Source: an uncultured Phycisphaera sp. (GTDB lineage: Bacteria > Planctomycetota > Phycisphaerae > Phycisphaerales > SM1A02). From it: 57,347 nt of DNA. How positions within the stretch are numbered: position 1 is the stretch's first letter; every line of letters starts with the position of its first letter. The notes beneath the pieces are model-generated. The model saw nothing but the letters and a program-made list of their open reading frames with translations. It was not told the origin of the DNA and did no database searches. Positions 1,737 through 18,447 of the stretch are shown one piece after another. Where the stretch lies: the NCBI GenBank assembly GCA_937919685.1, contig CALFOM010000047.1:1-57347 (forward strand), in the 5' to 3' direction. A program made the position numbers and the translations under genes.

Positions 1737-2711
1737 ATGGTTCCTCCAGACCCCATTCCGATGCGAGACGACCACGCCCTCGAGGCAGCGCTCTTCGACG
1801 CCGTCGCCGAGAACGCGATCTCTGAGCGTGACATGAAGGACCTGCTTCATCGGATGAAGTCGGCGCCCCGGGCCCCGCGCCGCGATGCGGTTCGATGCGA
1901 GATTGAAGTGGCGCTCCGGTTCATCGAAGCTGGGAGTCGCGTTCGAGCCGAAGTGACGGGGCCACAGGGACGAAGCGTCGATCTCGAGGTTCACACCCGC
2001 GACTGCATCTTTGCCGTTCATGTCAAACGACTTCAGGTCTCTCCGCTGCCGCTCGGTCCCCTGCCGATCGGGTTCGACGGTCTCGCTTCGATTCCCAGGC
2101 CCTATCTGGTTGGCGTGGAATGGCTGGGATCGGGGGAGCCCGAAGGCCACGTGCTGGCGGCCGCACGGGAATTCTTACTCGGAGCAAGGATCGGTGATCG
2201 ACTCGTGTTGCGCAATACCGCGAGCCGACGGATTGGCGCAATCGAGATCGCAGCCCCGCGGCCGCCCGACCCGGAAGGCACACCCTCCATCAAAATTGTC
2301 GCCGCCGGAAACGCCAACCATGCCAAAGCACTGGTGCGGCGGGCGGGCCGGTTGCTTCGCCGCGCCTATCGCCAGTTCGTCCCTGATCGGGAGAACGTCA
2401 TCGTCCTTGCGGGTGGCGGACCGTCCGCCCGCGACGTCGTGGACCGCGCCGTACTCGGCGGGCACGTGGAACGATGGGACCAGTTCCCACCAAGGCATCA
2501 GCGGGTGGCCCACGGTCGGAACGAGGAAGGCCTCTGGCAGGAGAGACGATTCGAACGTTCCCACCTCGTGGCATGGTGTCCGCTCGCGATTCCGCAGGGG
2601 GCGATCTGGATTCGTGAATCCGGCGTCATCCCCCCGGCGGTCATCGACACGGCTCGCCGAGCCGTCGGCGCGGCGCCCGGTCCGGACGCGCCCTCCAGAA
2701 TCACGTCGTGA
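1737..2711 (+). CDS. Hypothetical protein, possible degenerate PD-(D/E)XK fold
   Basis: 324 residues from ATG 1737; ATG 1761 is an equally possible start, and neither has a clear ribosome binding site. I do not recognise the family. Around residues 55-90 (EVALRFIEAG, then SVDLEVHTRDCIFAVHVKRL) the pattern helix, D-x-E-V strand and hydrophobic-V-K strand recalls PD-(D/E)XK nuclease-like folds. The ExK acidic residue is replaced by His (HVK), so an active nuclease is unlikely. The C-terminal half is rich in Arg and has a WCPLAIPQGAIW stretch. There is no signal peptide or membrane segment. It converges with hflX, with 30 bases between the stop codons, and no terminator is visible there. Confidence 0.7.
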   Translation: MVPPDPIPMRDDHALEAALFDAVAENAISERDMKDLLHRMKSAPRAPRRDAVRCEIEVALRFIEAGSRVRAEVTGPQGRSVDLEVHTRDCIFAVHVKRLQVSPLPLGPLPIGFDGLASIPRPYLVGVEWLGSGEPEGHVLAAAREFLLGARIGDRLVLRNTASRRIGAIEIAAPRPPDPEGTPSIKIVAAGNANHAKALVRRAGRLLRRAYRQFVPDRENVIVLAGGGPSARDVVDRAVLGGHVERWDQFPPRHQRVAHGRNEEGLWQERRFERSHLVAWCPLAIPQGAIWIRESGVIPPAVIDTARRAVGAAPGPDAPSRITS

Positions 2712-2741
2712 CCGCCGACCGTCGGCGATCGCGAAGTCGCC

Positions 2742-4163
2742 TCATTCCGGATGAAGAAGGAGATGCGGCGGGACGCGAGGCATCCGGAAGGTCTCGGCAT
2801 CCGGCCAGAGATGAGCGAGCGCCTCCGGCCCCTGAAGCCCGTCGGCGGTGAAGTGCGGCCCTCCCGCCATGAGCACCTCCAACTGGCGCCGACCGATCCG
2901 CGTACGGATCACCACTGAGCCCGACGTTCCGTAGTCGCGGTCGATCACGTCGGTCCGTTTCTCCACCAGATCGACCAACTTGCCCTCGGAGAGCGGAATC
3001 TCCAGTACGACCTCCCGCATCTCGCCCCGCATCTGCTCAAGGACGCGGTTGGTGAGCAACTCAAGACCTTCGCCGTCTCGAGCACTGGTGACGATCGCAT
3101 CCGGATTGCTCTCGATCCAGGCATCGAGCGTGTCCCCCGGAACGCGTCCCTCGTGGACGGTGGTGCGCAGCACATCCACTTTGTTCAAGATAAGAATCCG
3201 AGGCTGATTCACCGCCCCGATCTCGTCCAATACGCGATTGACGGTCTCAAACTGCCGTGCGGCGGCGGGGTCCGCCACGTCGAGGATCATCAGGAGCAGA
3301 TGAGCGTAGACCGTCTCTTCGAGCGTCGATTTAAAACTGGCCACCAGATGGTGTGGGAGGTCCCGGATGAAGCCGACGGTGTCGGAAATCAGGACGTTGT
3401 TGCCTCCGCCAAGATTCCACGACCCGACTCTCGTACTCAGCGTCGCGAAGAGCATGTCGGCCTCGAACGCGCCACCTTCAGTGAGTCCGTTGAACATCGT
3501 GCTCTTGCCAGCGTTGGTATAGCCGACGAGACCGACGGTAAAATGCTCGTCGCGACGAGTCGAGACCTCACGGGTGCGCCTTGCCTGAACTTCGGCAAGA
3601 TTGCGTTTGAGTTGGACGGCGCGGCGTTGCACGAGGCGACGATCGATTTCGAGTTGCTGCTCGCCGGGACCTCGGGTACCGACCCCGATCGGCGCACCGC
3701 CAGTGACCTGCCCGAGATGGCCCCACATCGCCCGCAGTCGAGGCGCCGTGTACTCCAACTGGGCAATCTCGACCTGCAGACGAGCCTCCTTGGTGGCAGC
3801 CCGGCTCGCGAAGATGTCGAGAATGAGTTCCGACCGATCAAGCACCTTGCACGCGAGGTCTTCTTCCAACGACTTGATCTGCATTGGCGAGAGGTCGTTG
3901 TCGAAGATCACCACCTTCGCCTTCAACATCCCCACCATCGCGGCGAGTTCCTCGACCTTGCCCTTCCCGAGATAGGTCCGTCCCCGCGGACGAACCCGCT
4001 GCTGCAGCAGCCGGCCGGCCACCTGCACGCCCGCCGCCTCGGCCAAGGCCGCCAGTTCCCGGAGCGGATCGCCTTCGTCGGCCACCGTGCTTGGGAGGAT
4101 CACGCCCACCAGAATCGCCGCCTCCTCGTGGATGTCGATGCCTTCGCGGCGGTCGTCCTTCAT
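2742..4163 (-). CDS. hflX: GTPase HflX, ribosome-associated
   Basis: 473 residues from ATG 4163; about 50 further in-frame residues upstream are not HflX-like. The N-terminal HflX domain carries the conserved RGRTYLGKGK segment, followed by the glycine-rich GGAPIGVGTRGPGE linker. The G domain has GYTNAGKST (about 214-222, G1), DTVGF (about 262-266, G3) and NKVD (about 328-331, G4). HflX binds the 50S subunit and splits or rescues stalled 70S ribosomes, notably under heat stress. The length is usual for the family, allowing for a long C-terminal extension. It is monocistronic and divergent from the ctpA operon, with about 180 bases between their starts. Confidence 0.96.
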   Translation of the reverse strand: MKDDRREGIDIHEEAAILVGVILPSTVADEGDPLRELAALAEAAGVQVAGRLLQQRVRPRGRTYLGKGKVEELAAMVGMLKAKVVIFDNDLSPMQIKSLEEDLACKVLDRSELILDIFASRAATKEARLQVEIAQLEYTAPRLRAMWGHLGQVTGGAPIGVGTRGPGEQQLEIDRRLVQRRAVQLKRNLAEVQARRTREVSTRRDEHFTVGLVGYTNAGKSTMFNGLTEGGAFEADMLFATLSTRVGSWNLGGGNNVLISDTVGFIRDLPHHLVASFKSTLEETVYAHLLLMILDVADPAAARQFETVNRVLDEIGAVNQPRILILNKVDVLRTTVHEGRVPGDTLDAWIESNPDAIVTSARDGEGLELLTNRVLEQMRGEMREVVLEIPLSEGKLVDLVEKRTDVIDRDYGTSGSVVIRTRIGRRQLEVLMAGGPHFTADGLQGPEALAHLWPDAETFRMPRVPPHLLLHPE

Positions 4164-14295: not shown

Positions 14296-14347
14296 CAAGG
14301 CCGGCATTCCCAATTTACCCTCGATGTGGCGGGTTATCCTTCTGAGC

Positions 14348-16024
14348 ATGACATCGAACTCCATCCGACTTATTCGATTGATTCCTGTCTTCCTGATGCT
14401 GATCGCGATGACGTCGACCGTCCGGGCTTCGTCCTCGGATAGGCCGATGAACCTTGTCTGGATCTCGGTCGAGGACATGAGTTCTTGGCTCGGCTGTTAC
14501 GGCGATGCCACCGTGCCCACACCGAACGTGGATCGACTCGCCACCGAGGGCATCCGCTACCTCAACGCCTTCGCCACCACGCCGGTCTGTGCGCCCTCCC
14601 GTTCGACGCTGATCACTGGCAAGTGGCCCACCGAAATCGGATCGATGCACATGCGCACCGGCAACCAGAGTCGTGCGGCGCTGTCGCGAAATCCCGAGGC
14701 ATACGCGGACATTCCGAACTACGAGGCGGTTCCGCCGTCGGAGGTCCGCTGTTTTCCAGAGTTACTTCGAGCCGAAGGCCGCTTCTGTACGAATCGCAGC
14801 AAGACCGACTATCAGTTCAAAGCGCCCGCGACGACCTGGGATCGCACGGGCGGAAAAGCCCATTGGAAAGGCCGAAGAACGGCTGATCAGCCGTTCTTCG
14901 CAGTATTCAATCTGACCGTGACCCATGAGAGCGGCACCTTCGCCAAGCAGTCCCGAGAACCGAAGGTTGCCGACCCTGCATCCGTGGCCGTCCCGCCCTA
15001 TTACCCCGACACCCCGACGGTCCGTGACGACATCGCCCGCACCTACGACAACATCGCCGCGATGGATCGGCAGGTCGGGAGGATCCTGAAGGAACTCGAA
15101 GACGCGGGAGAACTCGAGAACACCGTCGTGATGTTCTTCAGCGATCACGGGGTCGGTCTCCCTCGAGGCAAGCGCTGCATCTATGACTCTGGCACCCGAA
15201 TTCCGTTGATCATCCGATGGCCGGCGGCGATGGACCGCCGAGGGGTCGATGACCGCGTGGTCTCCTTCGTCGACTTCGCCCCCACCGCCCTGTCCATCTG
15301 CGGCATTCGCCCGCCGATCTGGATGTCTGGTCGCGCCTTTGCCGGGGAGTACACCGCCCCCGGAACGGGGTTCGCCTTCCTCCACGCCGATCGAATGGAC
15401 GCCGTCCTAGATCGCACTCGCGCCGTCACCGATGGCCGGTACCGCTACGTGCGGAATCTCATGCCATCGCGGCCTCGACTCTACAACGTCGCCTACGCTG
15501 AACAAATTCCGATGATGGCCGACATCCACGCCCTCCGAGCCTCTGGTGATGCGACCACTGATCAGTGGCAACTGGTGGATGGCACCAAGCCCGCGGAAGA
15601 GTTCTACGACACCGCCTCCGACCCACATGAAGTCAGAAATCTCATCGCGGATCCTTCGCAGACCGAACGGATCACTCGTCTTCGCGCGACGTTAGCGGCG
15701 TGGATGCAGGACACCGGCGATCTCGGACTCCTCTCCGAGGGCGACATGGTGCGACGGCACCTCTGGCACGGCGCTCCGCAGAAGCCAGCCACCGCACTGC
15801 CCACCCTCGCGATCGAGATCATCGATGGACGTCGCCACGCGGTCGTCGAGTGCGAGACTGAAGGCGCCTCACTCGGCTGGCGTCTCGAAGGTGAGTCGAC
15901 GTGGCATCTCGTCGATGGACCGATCCGGCTGCCGGATGACGCCACGAAGATCGAAGTCCTCGCCCATCGCATCGGGTACGTCCCTCGGACAAGCACTGGG
16001 CCAGTCTCCCCCGTCGTGGAGTGA
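14348..16024 (+). CDS. Secreted sulfatase (heparan N-sulfatase/arylsulfatase-like)
   Basis: 558 residues from ATG 14348. A typical signal peptide (LIRLIPVFLMLIAMTSTVRA) precedes MNLVWISVEDMSSWLGCYGD. The formylglycine motif CAPSRSTLITG begins at about Cys 81, and Cys in the C-x-P-S-R context is modified to formylglycine in active sulfatases. FFSDHGVGLPRGKRCIYDSGTRIP is the metal/substrate segment seen in N-sulfoglucosamine sulfohydrolase-like enzymes. The early metal site reads ED, not the usual DD. The likely role is periplasmic or extracellular desulfation of algal or animal polysaccharides, common in marine planctomycetes. The C-terminal about 80 residues form an extra small domain. The next gene is the RiPP-like precursor, 88 bases downstream. 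Confidence 0.95.
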   Translation: MTSNSIRLIRLIPVFLMLIAMTSTVRASSSDRPMNLVWISVEDMSSWLGCYGDATVPTPNVDRLATEGIRYLNAFATTPVCAPSRSTLITGKWPTEIGSMHMRTGNQSRAALSRNPEAYADIPNYEAVPPSEVRCFPELLRAEGRFCTNRSKTDYQFKAPATTWDRTGGKAHWKGRRTADQPFFAVFNLTVTHESGTFAKQSREPKVADPASVAVPPYYPDTPTVRDDIARTYDNIAAMDRQVGRILKELEDAGELENTVVMFFSDHGVGLPRGKRCIYDSGTRIPLIIRWPAAMDRRGVDDRVVSFVDFAPTALSICGIRPPIWMSGRAFAGEYTAPGTGFAFLHADRMDAVLDRTRAVTDGRYRYVRNLMPSRPRLYNVAYAEQIPMMADIHALRASGDATTDQWQLVDGTKPAEEFYDTASDPHEVRNLIADPSQTERITRLRATLAAWMQDTGDLGLLSEGDMVRRHLWHGAPQKPATALPTLAIEIIDGRRHAVVECETEGASLGWRLEGESTWHLVDGPIRLPDDATKIEVLAHRIGYVPRTSTGPVSPVVE

Positions 16025-16112
16025 TTCATCGGTCGAAGCCAGACGTCTGATCCGCGATGACAGCCCCACCCCGCGGCGTCCGAAATGGGTTTCTACGGCC
16101 AACGCCGCGTTC

Positions 16113-16433
16113 ATGGGCGGTGATCCTTCGACGGTGGTCGCTGACTTGATCGCTGCAGGGACGGCTCCCCCGTCTCCTCGCTGCTTTGACTCGACGGTGG
16201 CCGTCGGTGCCAGGTACGACTCCCTGGCCGAGTACGACATGCCGGTTCCTGATGGGATGAATGTCAAGGTGGTGGAGAACGCTGACAACTGCGTACATAT
16301 CACGATGCCTGCAGCGCCCGTCGGTCACCTGCAACTCTCAGATGAAGAACTGAGCAATGCGGCGGGGGGTATATGCGATACAAGAAAGCAGTCGTGTATT
16401 CAGCCAACTAAATACATCGGTTGTCCTGGGTAA
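16113..16433 (+). CDS. Putative NHLP-type RiPP precursor peptide
   Basis: 106 residues from ATG 16113, the only in-frame ATG between the sulfatase stop and the leader motifs; no ribosome binding site is visible, so the start is uncertain. The segment VPDGMNVKVVENADNCVHIT, then MPAAP and LSDEELSNAAGG, matches the nitrile-hydratase-like leader peptide (NHLP) pattern: VPEG-x-x-VKVVENT-x-D-x-VHL-x-LP and L-S-DEEL-x-x-x-AGG. The Gly-Gly is the expected cleavage site. The 20-residue core ICDTRKQSCIQPTKYIGCPG has three Cys plus Thr and Ser, suitable for thioether or disulfide rings. The core DNA has 26 G/C of 60, much lower than the surroundings. A terminator follows 17 bases after the stop. No modification enzyme or transporter lies in this window. 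The family call is by motif; the product is inferred. Confidence 0.72.
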   Translation: MGGDPSTVVADLIAAGTAPPSPRCFDSTVAVGARYDSLAEYDMPVPDGMNVKVVENADNCVHITMPAAPVGHLQLSDEELSNAAGGICDTRKQSCIQPTKYIGCPG

Positions 16434-16449
16434 GAGTTGCGTGCACATG

Positions 16450-16476
16450 CTGGCTGAAGAGCCGCAGCCAGTTTTT
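16450..16476 (+). terminator. Terminator of the RiPP-like precursor gene
   Basis: A 7-bp stem CTGGCTG/CAGCCAG with an eight-base loop is followed directly by TTTTT. It lies 17 bases after the stop at 16433, which supports the precursor being a transcribed gene. Confidence 0.75.
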
Positions 16477-16613
16477 AACTCTTTGAAACGGCGATTTCAA
16501 AAGACTAAAGACGATGACTGAGCAGAAGAACCAACTCGCGTCCCGGTTTGCGGCGTGCTGGTCTGGCGATTGAAGAATTGGTTTGGCCGAGTCGGGTCTT
16601 CAAAGAAATCACG

Positions 16614-16648
16614 AACGCCGCATCTCTCACAGGTGTGGCGTTTTTCGT
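16614..16648 (+). terminator. Second terminator-like hairpin, plus strand
   Basis: AACGCCGCA pairs with TGTGGCGTT (one G-U) around an 11-base loop, followed by TTTCGTTT. No gene lies directly upstream on this strand apart from the RiPP-like precursor, which already has a terminator, so this may end a small RNA or catch read-through. Confidence 0.45.
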
Positions 16649-16649
16649 T

Positions 16650-16679
16650 TGTGAACGCTTCTCGTGTGAACGCTTCTCG
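16650..16679. repeat. Perfect 15-bp tandem duplication
   Basis: TGTGAACGCTTCTCG occurs twice head to tail with no mismatch, in non-coding DNA. No function is apparent. Confidence 0.9.
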
Positions 16680-16826: not shown

Positions 16827-18344
16827 TCAGCCGAGGAGCGAGAGCACGGCCTGCGGGCTCGAGTTGGCCATGGCCAGCGACTGGATGGCAGCCTGCTGGA
16901 GGATCTGTCCGCGAGTCAGCGCCGCGGTCTCGGCCGCGAAGTCGGTGTCACGGATCTGGCTTTCGGCTGCTGCGGTGTTCTCAAGAGCGATACCGAGCGA
17001 GCTGATGGTCGAACCAACGGTGTTCTTCTGGAACGCACCGAGTCGGCCACGGAGGCTGGAGACCTGCTTGATGGCGTCGTCGATGACCGACTGAGCCTTC
17101 GAAAGGTCACCGTTCTGAACGTTGCTGATGCCACCCGACTTAAGGTCGGAGAGGAAACCGCTGCTTCCCGAACCAAGGTTTCCCGTGGTCACGGTCTCGA
17201 TACCGAGGGAGACCTTTCCGGCGAGGTCCACGGAGGGAGCAAGATTGAAGTTCGCACCACCACCGGTGATGCTGAACGACGAGTTGCCGCCGTCGGTGTT
17301 GGCGGAGGAACCGATGGTGATCGAAACGTCAAAGCCGGCGCTCGAGACGCGAGCGGTCAGGCCGTTCGTAGTGGCCTGAGTACCGTTGATCAGGACGGTG
17401 GCGTCGGAACCCCAGATCGAACCGGTGTCTTCGGTGCCTGCGAAACTGCCAGGTCCGTCGATCGCCTCGCCGATGAAGCCGGCTGAGGGGTTGCTGTCGT
17501 CGGTGGTGCCATCGTTGAGTTCCTTGACTCGAACGAACGACTCGGAACCGAACTCCTGAGCATCGACCCGAATATAGGCGCCACTGAGGCTTGCTGTGAC
17601 ACCAAGCTGGTCAGCGAACGAGTTGACCGCCGACTCGATGTCGCTCGCGGCGGTTTCGTCGGCGAAAGTGAACTGCTGACTTCCCTTGGTACCGGTGATC
17701 TCGATGGTGTACGAGGCAAACTGAGTACCAGAACCGTCACCGTTTGAATCGCCGGCATTGAAGACGCCGCCCGAAGTCTGGATCGCGATCGCGCCGGTGG
17801 TGGCCGCGTCGACCACGGTCACATCGACCGACATGGCGGTACCGTCATCGGCGAGCTTCGCGGCATTGATGGTGACGTCGGTCAACTCAGACGAATTGAT
17901 GTTCTCGGTCGAGTAGTCGAAGTTGCCGTTGAGCAGCTTTTCGCCCTGGAAGGCCGTGGCGTTGGCGATACGATCGATGGTCTGAAGGATCGAATCGATC
18001 TGCAACTGGTTGGCGGCCTTCTCTTCCGAGGAGACGCCAGCTTCGTTGGCGGTCGACGACACCAGCGACTGGAGTTCGATCAGAAGGTTCGAAACCTCCT
18101 GAAGGCCGCCTTCGGCGACATTGACGACCTGCTCGGCACGCTCGGCATTGTTGATTGCGGCGTTGATCGCGGCCTTTTCACTGCGAAGGTTTTCACTGGC
18201 GATCAGGCCAGCCGGATCGTCCGCACCGCGGTTGATCCGAAGGCCGGTGGAGAGCCGCTGAAGGCTCTTGTTGAGGCTCATGTTCTGCGAACCGAGGGTT
18301 CGCTGAGCGACCATGCTGGAAATGTTCTGATTGATGCGACTCAT
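16827..18344 (-). CDS. fliC: Flagellin, copy 1
   Basis: 505 residues from ATG 18344, with GGAGGACACC just upstream. The N-terminal D0/D1 segment is classical (SRINQNISSMVAQRTLG, then LQRLSTGLRINRGADDPAGL). The C-terminal D0/D1 ends in AAESQIRDTDFAAETAALTR and SSPQAVLSLLG. Residues about 190-400 form the variable surface domain and carry repeated FxxxDETAASDIESAVN-type flagellin insert elements (FlaN/FlgL-hypervariable-like). It self-assembles into the filament after export. It resembles copy 2 at both ends but differs in the middle, so the two are paralogues. It has its own leader of more than 200 bases, a candidate sigma-54 site and a terminator, so it can be expressed separately from copy 2. 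Confidence 0.97.
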   Translation of the reverse strand: MSRINQNISSMVAQRTLGSQNMSLNKSLQRLSTGLRINRGADDPAGLIASENLRSEKAAINAAINNAERAEQVVNVAEGGLQEVSNLLIELQSLVSSTANEAGVSSEEKAANQLQIDSILQTIDRIANATAFQGEKLLNGNFDYSTENINSSELTDVTINAAKLADDGTAMSVDVTVVDAATTGAIAIQTSGGVFNAGDSNGDGSGTQFASYTIEITGTKGSQQFTFADETAASDIESAVNSFADQLGVTASLSGAYIRVDAQEFGSESFVRVKELNDGTTDDSNPSAGFIGEAIDGPGSFAGTEDTGSIWGSDATVLINGTQATTNGLTARVSSAGFDVSITIGSSANTDGGNSSFSITGGGANFNLAPSVDLAGKVSLGIETVTTGNLGSGSSGFLSDLKSGGISNVQNGDLSKAQSVIDDAIKQVSSLRGRLGAFQKNTVGSTISSLGIALENTAAAESQIRDTDFAAETAALTRGQILQQAAIQSLAMANSSPQAVLSLLG

Positions 18345-18354
18345 GATGTGGTGT

Positions 18355-18395
18355 CCTCCGTGAACAGGCCCGAGCGAGGTGTCCCCTATTGCTCG
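18355..18395 (-). promoter_or_regulatory. Possible CsrA target in the copy 1 flagellin leader
   Basis: On the minus strand CGAGC/GCTCG (18395-18371) closes a loop containing GGGGACA. It is followed by the ribosome binding site GGAGGACACC (GGAGG at 18359-18355). Two GGA motifs, one in a hairpin loop and one overlapping the ribosome binding site, are the usual CsrA arrangement. csrA and fliW lie a few genes upstream. Binding is inferred. Confidence 0.4.
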
Positions 18396-18447
18396 AACCA
18401 CCCGAGTTTTGACCGGCCTCAAAGCGTCTTTGGCCGATCCAGTGACG

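What the first reader, a model, noticed from the sequence alone, without database searches (positions are those of the whole stretch)
16113..16433. Orphan NHLP-type RiPP precursor next to a sulfatase
The C-terminal two thirds of this small protein follow the nitrile-hydratase-like leader pattern (VPDG-MNVKVVEN-x-x-x-x-VHI-x-MP, then LSDEELSNAAGG) and end in a Gly-Gly site plus a 20-residue core with three Cys and several Thr/Ser. That is the architecture of precursor peptides for ribosomally made, post-translationally modified natural products. No radical SAM, YcaO, lanthionine synthetase, peptidase-transporter or second precursor lies within the window, so it would be a precursor acted on in trans, as known for some dispersed precursor families. 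Few planctomycete products of this kind are described.
Basis: partly seen in the sequence, partly recalled or inferred. Interest (0 to 1): 0.8.

Follow-up and report, generated by a model that had tools for sequence, protein, structure and literature searches.

The report
Broken lanthipeptide precursor fused to transposase
The small gene is the back half of a peptide-antibiotic-type precursor, broken and fused to the tail of a jumping-gene enzyme, and it points to uncultured planctomycetes whose precursor genes are scattered behind remnants of that jumping gene and served by one distant modifying enzyme.

Summary
The leader/GG/core sequence is real, but this ORF is not an intact precursor. Only the last 49 leader residues (16224-16370) and the 20-residue core belong to the NHLP family (TIGR03793 positions 35-77, 33.9 bits, below the 50.9 cut-off). 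The first 37 residues come from the 3' tail of an IS200/REP-type (Y1) transposase gene, in that gene's frame, joined at about 16224. Promoter, ribosome site and the leader's front half are lost. A second relic (MTEQKNQLASRFAACWSGD*) follows at 16514-16573.
In the genus, 7 of 8 genomes carry 5-14 leader matches, with near-constant leaders and random-like cores: a prochlorosin-like layout.
New here: of 26 transposase tails with readable sequence downstream, 24 have a leader start on the same strand, 22 of them 54-118 bp away (a biased set). In 151 family genomes strong matches to this transposase occur in four genera only, all with leaders. This suggests precursors were spread as transposase-linked cassettes; a lanthipeptide/TnpAREP link in picocyanobacteria is known to me only as a preprint title.

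The parts
14324..16024 (+). sulfatase gene (566 aa) upstream; its 3' side is the insertion site
   Evidence: ORF; PF00884 119 bits; orthologues
16044..16223 (+). remnant of the 3' coding end of a Y1/REP-type transposase gene (tnpA tail)
   Evidence: window 16053-16175 vs G003:C53 tnpA ORF, ungapped 78%, E 6.5e-22; protein 16044-16136 vs tail of G001:C119, 17 of 31 identical, E 1e-9 for the pair; 16176-16223 only through other copies of the repeat, e.g. G007:C44
16152..16184 (+). GC-rich palindrome (REP-like) inside the tail; related hairpins recur elsewhere in the genus
   Evidence: DNA fold z -2.9; other copies
16113..16433 (+).
16224..16370 (+). C-terminal 49 residues of an NHLP leader ending LSDEELSNAAGG
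   Evidence: TIGR03793 positions 35-77, 33.9 bits; PDB 8tb1 match E 3.9e-5; paralogues
16371..16430 (+). 20-residue core ICDTRKQSCIQPTKYIGCPG
   Evidence: sequence; most DNA alignments to other precursors stop at 16369-16379, two run across it at 72-75% overall
16449..16472 (+). terminator-like hairpin after the broken precursor
16482..16653 (+). miniature precursor relic unit (ribosome-site region, leader start, hairpin), a dispersed repeat in the genus
16514..16573 (+). 19-codon ORF MTEQKNQLASRFAACWSGD*: first 16 leader codons, then a shared deletion junction
16613..16643 (+). terminator-like hairpin of the miniature unit
16827..18422 (-). flagellin-like ORF on the other side of the insertion site (context; named by eye, not searched)
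   Evidence: ORF

Best explanation
The window carries a decayed member of a dispersed family of class II lanthipeptide (lanA) precursor genes of a planctomycete genus. Many family members stand in a small cassette: the 3' end of a Y1/REP-type transposase gene (tnpA), about 100 bp with the presumed lanA promoter, the lanA gene (81-residue NHLP leader, Gly-Gly, hypervariable core) and often a hairpin terminator. A cassette inserted between a sulfatase gene and a flagellin-like gene in the ancestor of part of the genus. In this lineage a deletion then joined the tnpA tail to leader codon 33, removing promoter, start and the front half of the leader, so the visible ORF is an in-frame fusion. A second, internally deleted copy follows it. 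Intact precursors elsewhere in the genome are inferred to be modified in trans by the single LanM (contig C250) and cleaved at Gly-Gly and exported by the NHLM/C39 exporter (contig C226). Shown from sequence: homologies, frame, junction, dispersal, position behind tnpA tails. Inferred: that TnpA moved the cassettes, that this copy is silent, and all chemistry.
For: Leader half only, with breakpoint. Transposase frame. The orthologous site in G003 has leader codons 14 onward and another core; G006 has tail and miniature relic only; G002 and G005 have 12 bp between sulfatase stop and flagellin-side terminator against 739 here. Linkage: 41 distinct tail places in 155 sequences; 15 lie within 92 bp of a contig end; of the other 26, 24 have a leader-like start downstream on the same strand, 22 at 54-118 bp. 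Intact tnpA 83 bp before a leader start in L263. From the leader side: a tail within 600 bp upstream for 15 of 114 starts, opposite strand 1, downstream 2. Family scan: tnpA profile at 113 bits or more in 7 of 151 genomes, genera g1, g7, g14, g29; the next score is 68.0; leaders occur in those four genera. Control: 0 of 23 generic transposase loci hold a leader (best E 0.86). System: LanM 518.6 bits, cut-off 304; exporter. Leaders 74%, cores 16.7%, shuffled cores 15.8% identical (35 of 38 precursors found). No promoter-like site.
Against: The back half is not visibly decaying: no stop or frameshift, and against 12 near paralogues its private codon changes are one amino-acid change and three silent ones; so the break is recent, or the fusion is still used. 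No target-site duplication or clean cassette ends were found; left ends are ragged (by eye). The tail/leader count comes from loci mostly fetched for leaders or tail DNA, sequences overlap in part, several sites are orthologous, and the weakest tails have E 0.004-0.006. From the leader side 99 of 114 starts had no tail with the single query. No tnpA match in G002, G004, G005, and only short pieces in G006 and G007, although leaders occur in all of these but G002. TnpA had no significant sequence match in the PDB (best E 0.92) and falls under the NF047646 cut-off. The relatives named are almost all titled MAG.
Confidence: 0.75

Rival explanations
1. The ORF is a working precursor: the transposase tail serves as a replacement N-terminus, transcription reads through from the sulfatase gene, and the LanM and C39 exporter recognise the retained leader end.
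For: Open frame across the junction, intact LSDEELSNAAGG end, Cys/Ser/Thr core, no decay of the back half. For one NHLP enzyme, the brominase SrpI, the folded part of the leader was dispensable (PMC12455567, passages seen).
Against: No promoter-like site, no ribosome site that I can see. Leader lost up to residue 32; in MprE7, another NHLP precursor, deletion of residues 1-37 nearly abolished modification by a YcaO enzyme (PMC12455567, passages seen). The fusion frame is not present in G003 or G006.
Confidence: 0.12
2. The relic is as described, but dispersal of precursors is due to ordinary recombination and segmental duplication; tnpA is only a hitch-hiking neighbour.
For: Ragged left ends and no target duplications; tandem arrays of precursors, e.g. 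G013:C22 and G005:C123; tnpA not found in some genomes with leaders; most leader starts without a tail in the single-query test.
Against: The tail lies at a tight distance before leaders at up to about 20 sites (my grouping of the 24 by contig and flank) in several genera, and strong matches to this tnpA occur only in leader-bearing genera.
Confidence: 0.3
3. Assembly artefact: a chimeric join between tnpA-tail DNA and another precursor in a bin full of repeats.
For: Cassette copies often end contigs, so repeats do break these assemblies.
Against: The left side continues into the right sulfatase tail and the right side into the orthologous miniature relic and flagellin side, as in G006 and, on two contigs, G003. 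Only a few bases are shared at the junction (by eye).
Confidence: 0.05

Closest known systems
Prochlorosins / synechococsins (ProcM and SyncM systems of marine picocyanobacteria)
   Same: One class II LanM and several precursors with conserved leader and hypervariable core; precursor genes can be scattered over the genome (PMC10783134, passages seen).
   Different: Leader is NHLP, not Nif11; host is a planctomycete; 1-18 leader matches per leader-bearing genome against 29 and 79 precursors; here many precursors sit directly behind transposase tails.
NHLP/Nif11 precursor families and NHLM exporter (Haft et al. 2010, PMC2887384, passages seen)
   Same: Leader family TIGR03793 and exporter set TIGR03794/03796/03797, with paralogous precursor families.
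   Different: 'planctomyc' does not occur in that paper's text; ABC1 and ABC2 here fall just under the curated cut-offs; most precursors are on other contigs than the exporter.
TnpAREP transposases and REP palindromes (PMC8266576, passages seen)
   Same: Y1/HUH catalytic domain; REP-like palindromes nearby; 4er8 among the fold matches, rank 11.
   Different: C-terminal extension of roughly 150-170 residues; 54.2-66.0 bits against a cut-off of 80 for NF047646; its 3' end stands before lanA genes.
[quoted passage not shown]
   Same: Judging from the title alone (reference 39 of PMC10783134): the same kind of linkage.
   Different: Not held, so not compared; this case is another phylum and another leader family.

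Membership tests
NHLP-leader RiPP precursor (TIGR03793) | Full leader scoring over the curated cut-off of 50.9 bits | tested here: not met
   33.9 bits, positions 35-77 of 77; the paralogues on C137 and C210 score 69.7 and 67.9
NHLP-leader RiPP precursor (TIGR03793) | Leader end with Gly-Gly site followed by a variable core | tested here: met
   LSDEELSNAAGG then ICDTRKQSCIQPTKYIGCPG
NHLP-leader RiPP precursor (TIGR03793) | Modification enzyme and C39 exporter in the genome | tested here: met
   LanM at G000:C250 (518.6 bits); exporter at G000:C226 with Peptidase_C39 108.4 bits
Prochlorosin-type system | Single LanM with several unlinked precursors, constant leader, variable core | tested here: met
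   one LanM match in 7 of the 8 genomes with any (G005 has two)
Prochlorosin-type system | Nif11-type leader | tested here: not met
   NCBIfam best match of the window ORF is NHLP and no Nif11 model is listed at E up to 1
Prochlorosin-type system | Lanthionine rings shown in products | not testable with these tools
   needs expression and mass spectrometry
TnpAREP (REP-associated tyrosine transposase), for the neighbouring tnpA | Y1/HUH transposase domain | tested here: met
   PF01797 46.5-55.3 bits for L258, L259, L263 and 53.6-54.4 for G000, G001, G003, cut-off 23; invariant SNHVH and RYIHGNP (that these are catalytic motifs is recalled); IS200-type folds and 4er8
TnpAREP (REP-associated tyrosine transposase), for the neighbouring tnpA | NF047646 score over cut-off 80 | tested here: not met
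   54.2-66.0 bits
TnpAREP (REP-associated tyrosine transposase), for the neighbouring tnpA | Acts on its own REP hairpin | not testable with these tools
   palindromes lie in some tails; activity unknown

The most novel reading that the evidence does not exclude
A Y1/REP-type transposase carries lanthipeptide precursor genes behind its own 3' end and scatters them, intact or as miniature internally deleted units, over planctomycete genomes: a transposase-driven peptide library served by one LanM.
Probability: 0.45. Interest if true: 0.75.

Novelty: new variant of a known kind. Interest (0 to 1): 0.56.

Why it matters
How prochlorosin-like systems come to have many unlinked precursor genes is, as far as I know, open. 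Here the upstream side of many precursors still holds the end of one specific transposase gene, in several genera, together with miniature derivatives and a site with and without the insertion. That makes the spreading mechanism directly testable. It also brings the NHLP leader family and a planctomycete genus into one-enzyme, many-substrate lanthipeptide biosynthesis, and warns that ORFs with a Gly-Gly leader end may be broken cassettes.

Tried and rejected
Nitrile hydratase fragment: rejected; TIGR01323 17.1 bits against 33.9 for the NHLP leader, and a Gly-Gly end. Frameshifted full leader: the three frames upstream show no front half (by eye). Intact orphan precursor: see rivals. Codon test for decay of the back half: uninformative. 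Search for clean cassette ends, empty sites and target duplications at three other sites: flanks were found, but contigs end there or flanks differ; no duplication seen. Structure model of TnpA: only the catalytic domain is confident (mean pLDDT 52.6; residues 1-8, 127-165 and 181-297 under 50). TnpA against PDB sequences: nothing significant. First tail/leader count, from the leader side with a single tail query, gave 15 of 114; the count quoted in the summary is from the tail side with four queries. That count leaves out four rows that repeat a place already listed (L146, L166, window, L180). Core statistics leave out 3 of 38 precursors whose Gly-Gly was not parsed. Literature: 8 searches, of which 33, 34 and 51 list every paper found and the others only 15-25 of 28-912. 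In these listings I saw no title on NHLP/LanM precursors in Phycisphaerae, nor on TnpAREP with lanthipeptides beyond the one reference; that is a statement about these listings only. PMC7794033 was looked at for planctomycetes (passages): only a mention of distant homologues of another lanthipeptide class.

Full report
WHAT IS IN THE WINDOW. The ORF 16113-16433 is real. Read from its 3' end it has a 20-residue core with three Cys, a Gly-Gly site, and 49 leader residues that match the NHLP leader family TIGR03793 at positions 35-77 only (33.9 bits, E 2.2e-8, cut-off 50.9). In DNA, 16223-16370 is up to 88% identical to full-length precursors of the same genus, 69-93% over all matches. Intact precursors of the genus typically start like MTEQKNQLASLFAACWKDEALKARFMSDPKAV; the window copy lacks this front half, and no other frame holds it. 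The leader begins at codon 33, at 16224.

WHAT THE FRONT OF THE ORF IS. DNA 16049-16228 is a dispersed repeat of the genus. In genome G003 it forms the 3' part of an open reading frame for a Y1 transposase. In protein, 17 of 31 residues agree with the transposase tail of G001:C119 (E 1e-9 for the pair), and GGDPSTVVADLIAAGTAPPS matches the end of the G003 frame at 15 of 20. The G003 contig stops there; the last 16 residues before the junction are tied to the tail only through other copies of the repeat, such as G007:C44, which reads on into the conserved tail end. So the 'N-terminal third' is transposase tail, with a REP-like palindrome in it.

THE SITE IN RELATIVES. The sulfatase has orthologues in G001, G003, G006, G007 (82-84%) and G002, G005 (70%). 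G002 and G005 have 12 bp between the sulfatase stop and the flagellin-side terminator; the window has 739. G006 has tail, promoter region and a 19-codon miniature relic. G007 has a tail and a variant of the same relic before its contig ends. In G003 one contig stops in the tail, and another begins with leader codon 14 of a precursor with a different core (KTLPGAISPRPGADYNVTCC), followed by the same relic and the flagellin side; that the two contigs meet is inferred. G001 ends inside the gene and G004 has only a weak match. The simplest history is insertion of a cassette in the ancestor of G000, G003, G006 and G007 and later loss of the front half here.

THE MINIATURE RELIC. At 16514-16573 stands MTEQKNQLASRFAACWSGD*, the first 16 leader codons joined to a short stop-bearing piece and a hairpin terminator. 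A scan limited to short ORFs lists twelve copies, at about eight sites by my grouping, in G000, G003, G006 and G007; 11 of the 12 have the SGD* ending and one KDG*. Because the scan asked for a short ORF, the kept frame is partly built in; a diverged copy in G007:C10 reads on. This looks like one internally deleted precursor that was copied.

THE SYSTEM IT CAME FROM. Own genome (254 contigs, 97% complete): five leader matches, two over the cut-off (C137, C210), the window copy, and two more partial ones. C123 is a relic (stop at codon 3); C217 is cut by its contig start and runs into other sequence after about 40 residues. One LanM of 1126 aa on C250 (TIGR03897, 518.6 bits, cut-off 304). Exporter on C226: HlyD-like TIGR03794 159.9 bits (cut-off 156.2), C39-peptidase ABC TIGR03796 829.7 (853.3), ABC TIGR03797 680.3 (709.4), TolC-like protein. 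Of 61 genomes (own included) 11 have leader matches; within the genus 7 of 8, with 5-14 each. LanM occurs in 8 of 37 genomes, all of which have leader matches; G004 (68% complete) and G014 (one weak match) have leader matches without LanM, and G002 has neither. A near full-length exporter ABC also occurs in G008 without leaders or LanM. Among 35 precursors with a parsed core (of 38 found, several genera), leaders are 74% identical on average and cores 16.7% (15.8% after shuffling); 11 of 35 cores have no Cys, so those cannot form lanthionine rings. Named relatives are, by their titles, nearly all MAGs of Phycisphaerales or other Planctomycetes. That they are marine, and that AG-333-L23 (L215, L258, L263) is a single-cell genome, I take from the style of the isolate names (recalled; the AG-333-L23 title says MAG).

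LINK TO THE TRANSPOSASE. With four tail queries on 155 sequences (1.406 Mb; none wholly contained in another, partial overlaps remain) I find 41 distinct tail places, four repeated rows dropped. Fifteen lie within 92 bp of a contig end. Of the other 26, 24 have a leader-like start downstream on the same strand: 22 at 54-118 bp, one at 300, and the window at 377 (its own precursor start is lost; the start found is that of the miniature relic). The two exceptions are in G002, which has no leaders, and G001:C119, where a degenerate MTE*KNRLQ is visible by eye. This set is biased: most loci were fetched for leaders or tail DNA, and some sites are orthologous. From the leader side the link is partial: with a single tail query, 15 of 114 leader starts have a tail within 600 bp upstream on the same strand, against 1 on the opposite strand and 2 downstream. 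The less biased test is: over 151 genomes of the family, strong matches to the transposase profile (113 bits or more) occur in 7 genomes of genera g1, g7, g14 and g29; the next score is 68.0 and the weaker rows cover mostly the catalytic part, apart from two tail fragments in G006 and G111. Leaders were found in these four genera (g8 has one weak leader match and no such transposase). None of 23 generic transposase loci has a leader within about 1.5 kb (best E 0.86). In L263 an intact tnpA lies 83 bp before a leader start at the contig end.

MECHANISM. Most likely the tnpA-tail/lanA cassette was spread by this Y1 transposase or with its help; intact precursors are modified in trans by the one LanM and exported by the C226 system; the window copy is silent. 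The first clause is an inference from position; no cut sites or target duplications were seen, and tnpA was not found in every genome with leaders. The last clause rests on the missing promoter, ribosome site and leader front. For another NHLP precursor, removal of residues 1-37 nearly abolished modification by a YcaO enzyme, while a brominase did not need the folded part (PMC12455567, passages); what this LanM needs is unknown. The retained half shows no decay, so a recent break or residual use cannot be excluded.

NOVELTY. One LanM with scattered precursors is known from picocyanobacteria (PMC10783134, passages), NHLP leaders and exporters from PMC2887384 (passages). A lanthipeptide/TnpAREP association is the title of a preprint I could not read. 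Not seen in the listings of my eight searches, five of which were capped: the planctomycete NHLP version, the fixed tnpA-tail/lanA order, and the miniature derivatives.

Noticed in passing
window 16514-16573; G006:C25, C28, C41, C22; G007:C158, C160, C76, C188, C103; G003:C4; G000:C112: Dispersed 19-codon ORF made of the leader start with an SGD* (once KDG*) ending, 12 copies in a scan limited to short ORFs. Could be a decoy peptide rather than a dead relic.
   Followed up: partly
L037:4204-4665; L044, L045: Open frames holding two leader matches: a 153-aa protein next to LanM in G005, and 199-codon frames at G003:C15 and G001:C320.
   Followed up: no
L085:1055-2356 and 2482-3432 (G000:C226): JmjC_2 (89 bits) and weak, sub-cut-off sulfotransferase-like genes beside the exporter; possible tailoring enzymes.
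   Followed up: no
L037:8255-9337: DUF7005 gene (171 bits) between exporter and LanM in G005.
   Followed up: no
G006:C3:36439-36831: Five copies of the REP-like palindrome at about 89-bp spacing.
   Followed up: no
G000:C128:7106-7833: 99% identical to G006:C28 over 728 bp while other stretches compared between these two genomes are about 80-90%; recent transfer or a misbinned contig.
   Followed up: no
G000:C127 end; G006:C14:138052-138225: Copies of the tail repeat that also carry DNA resembling the 3' end of the window's sulfatase gene, as if flanking DNA moved with the cassette.
   Followed up: partly
G005:C123 and C133: The LanM/exporter cluster is present twice with the same protein lengths; the bin has 6% contamination, so possibly two strains.
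   Followed up: no
G006:C25:59277-60962: The sulfatase match in G006 contains a TAA stop.
   Followed up: no
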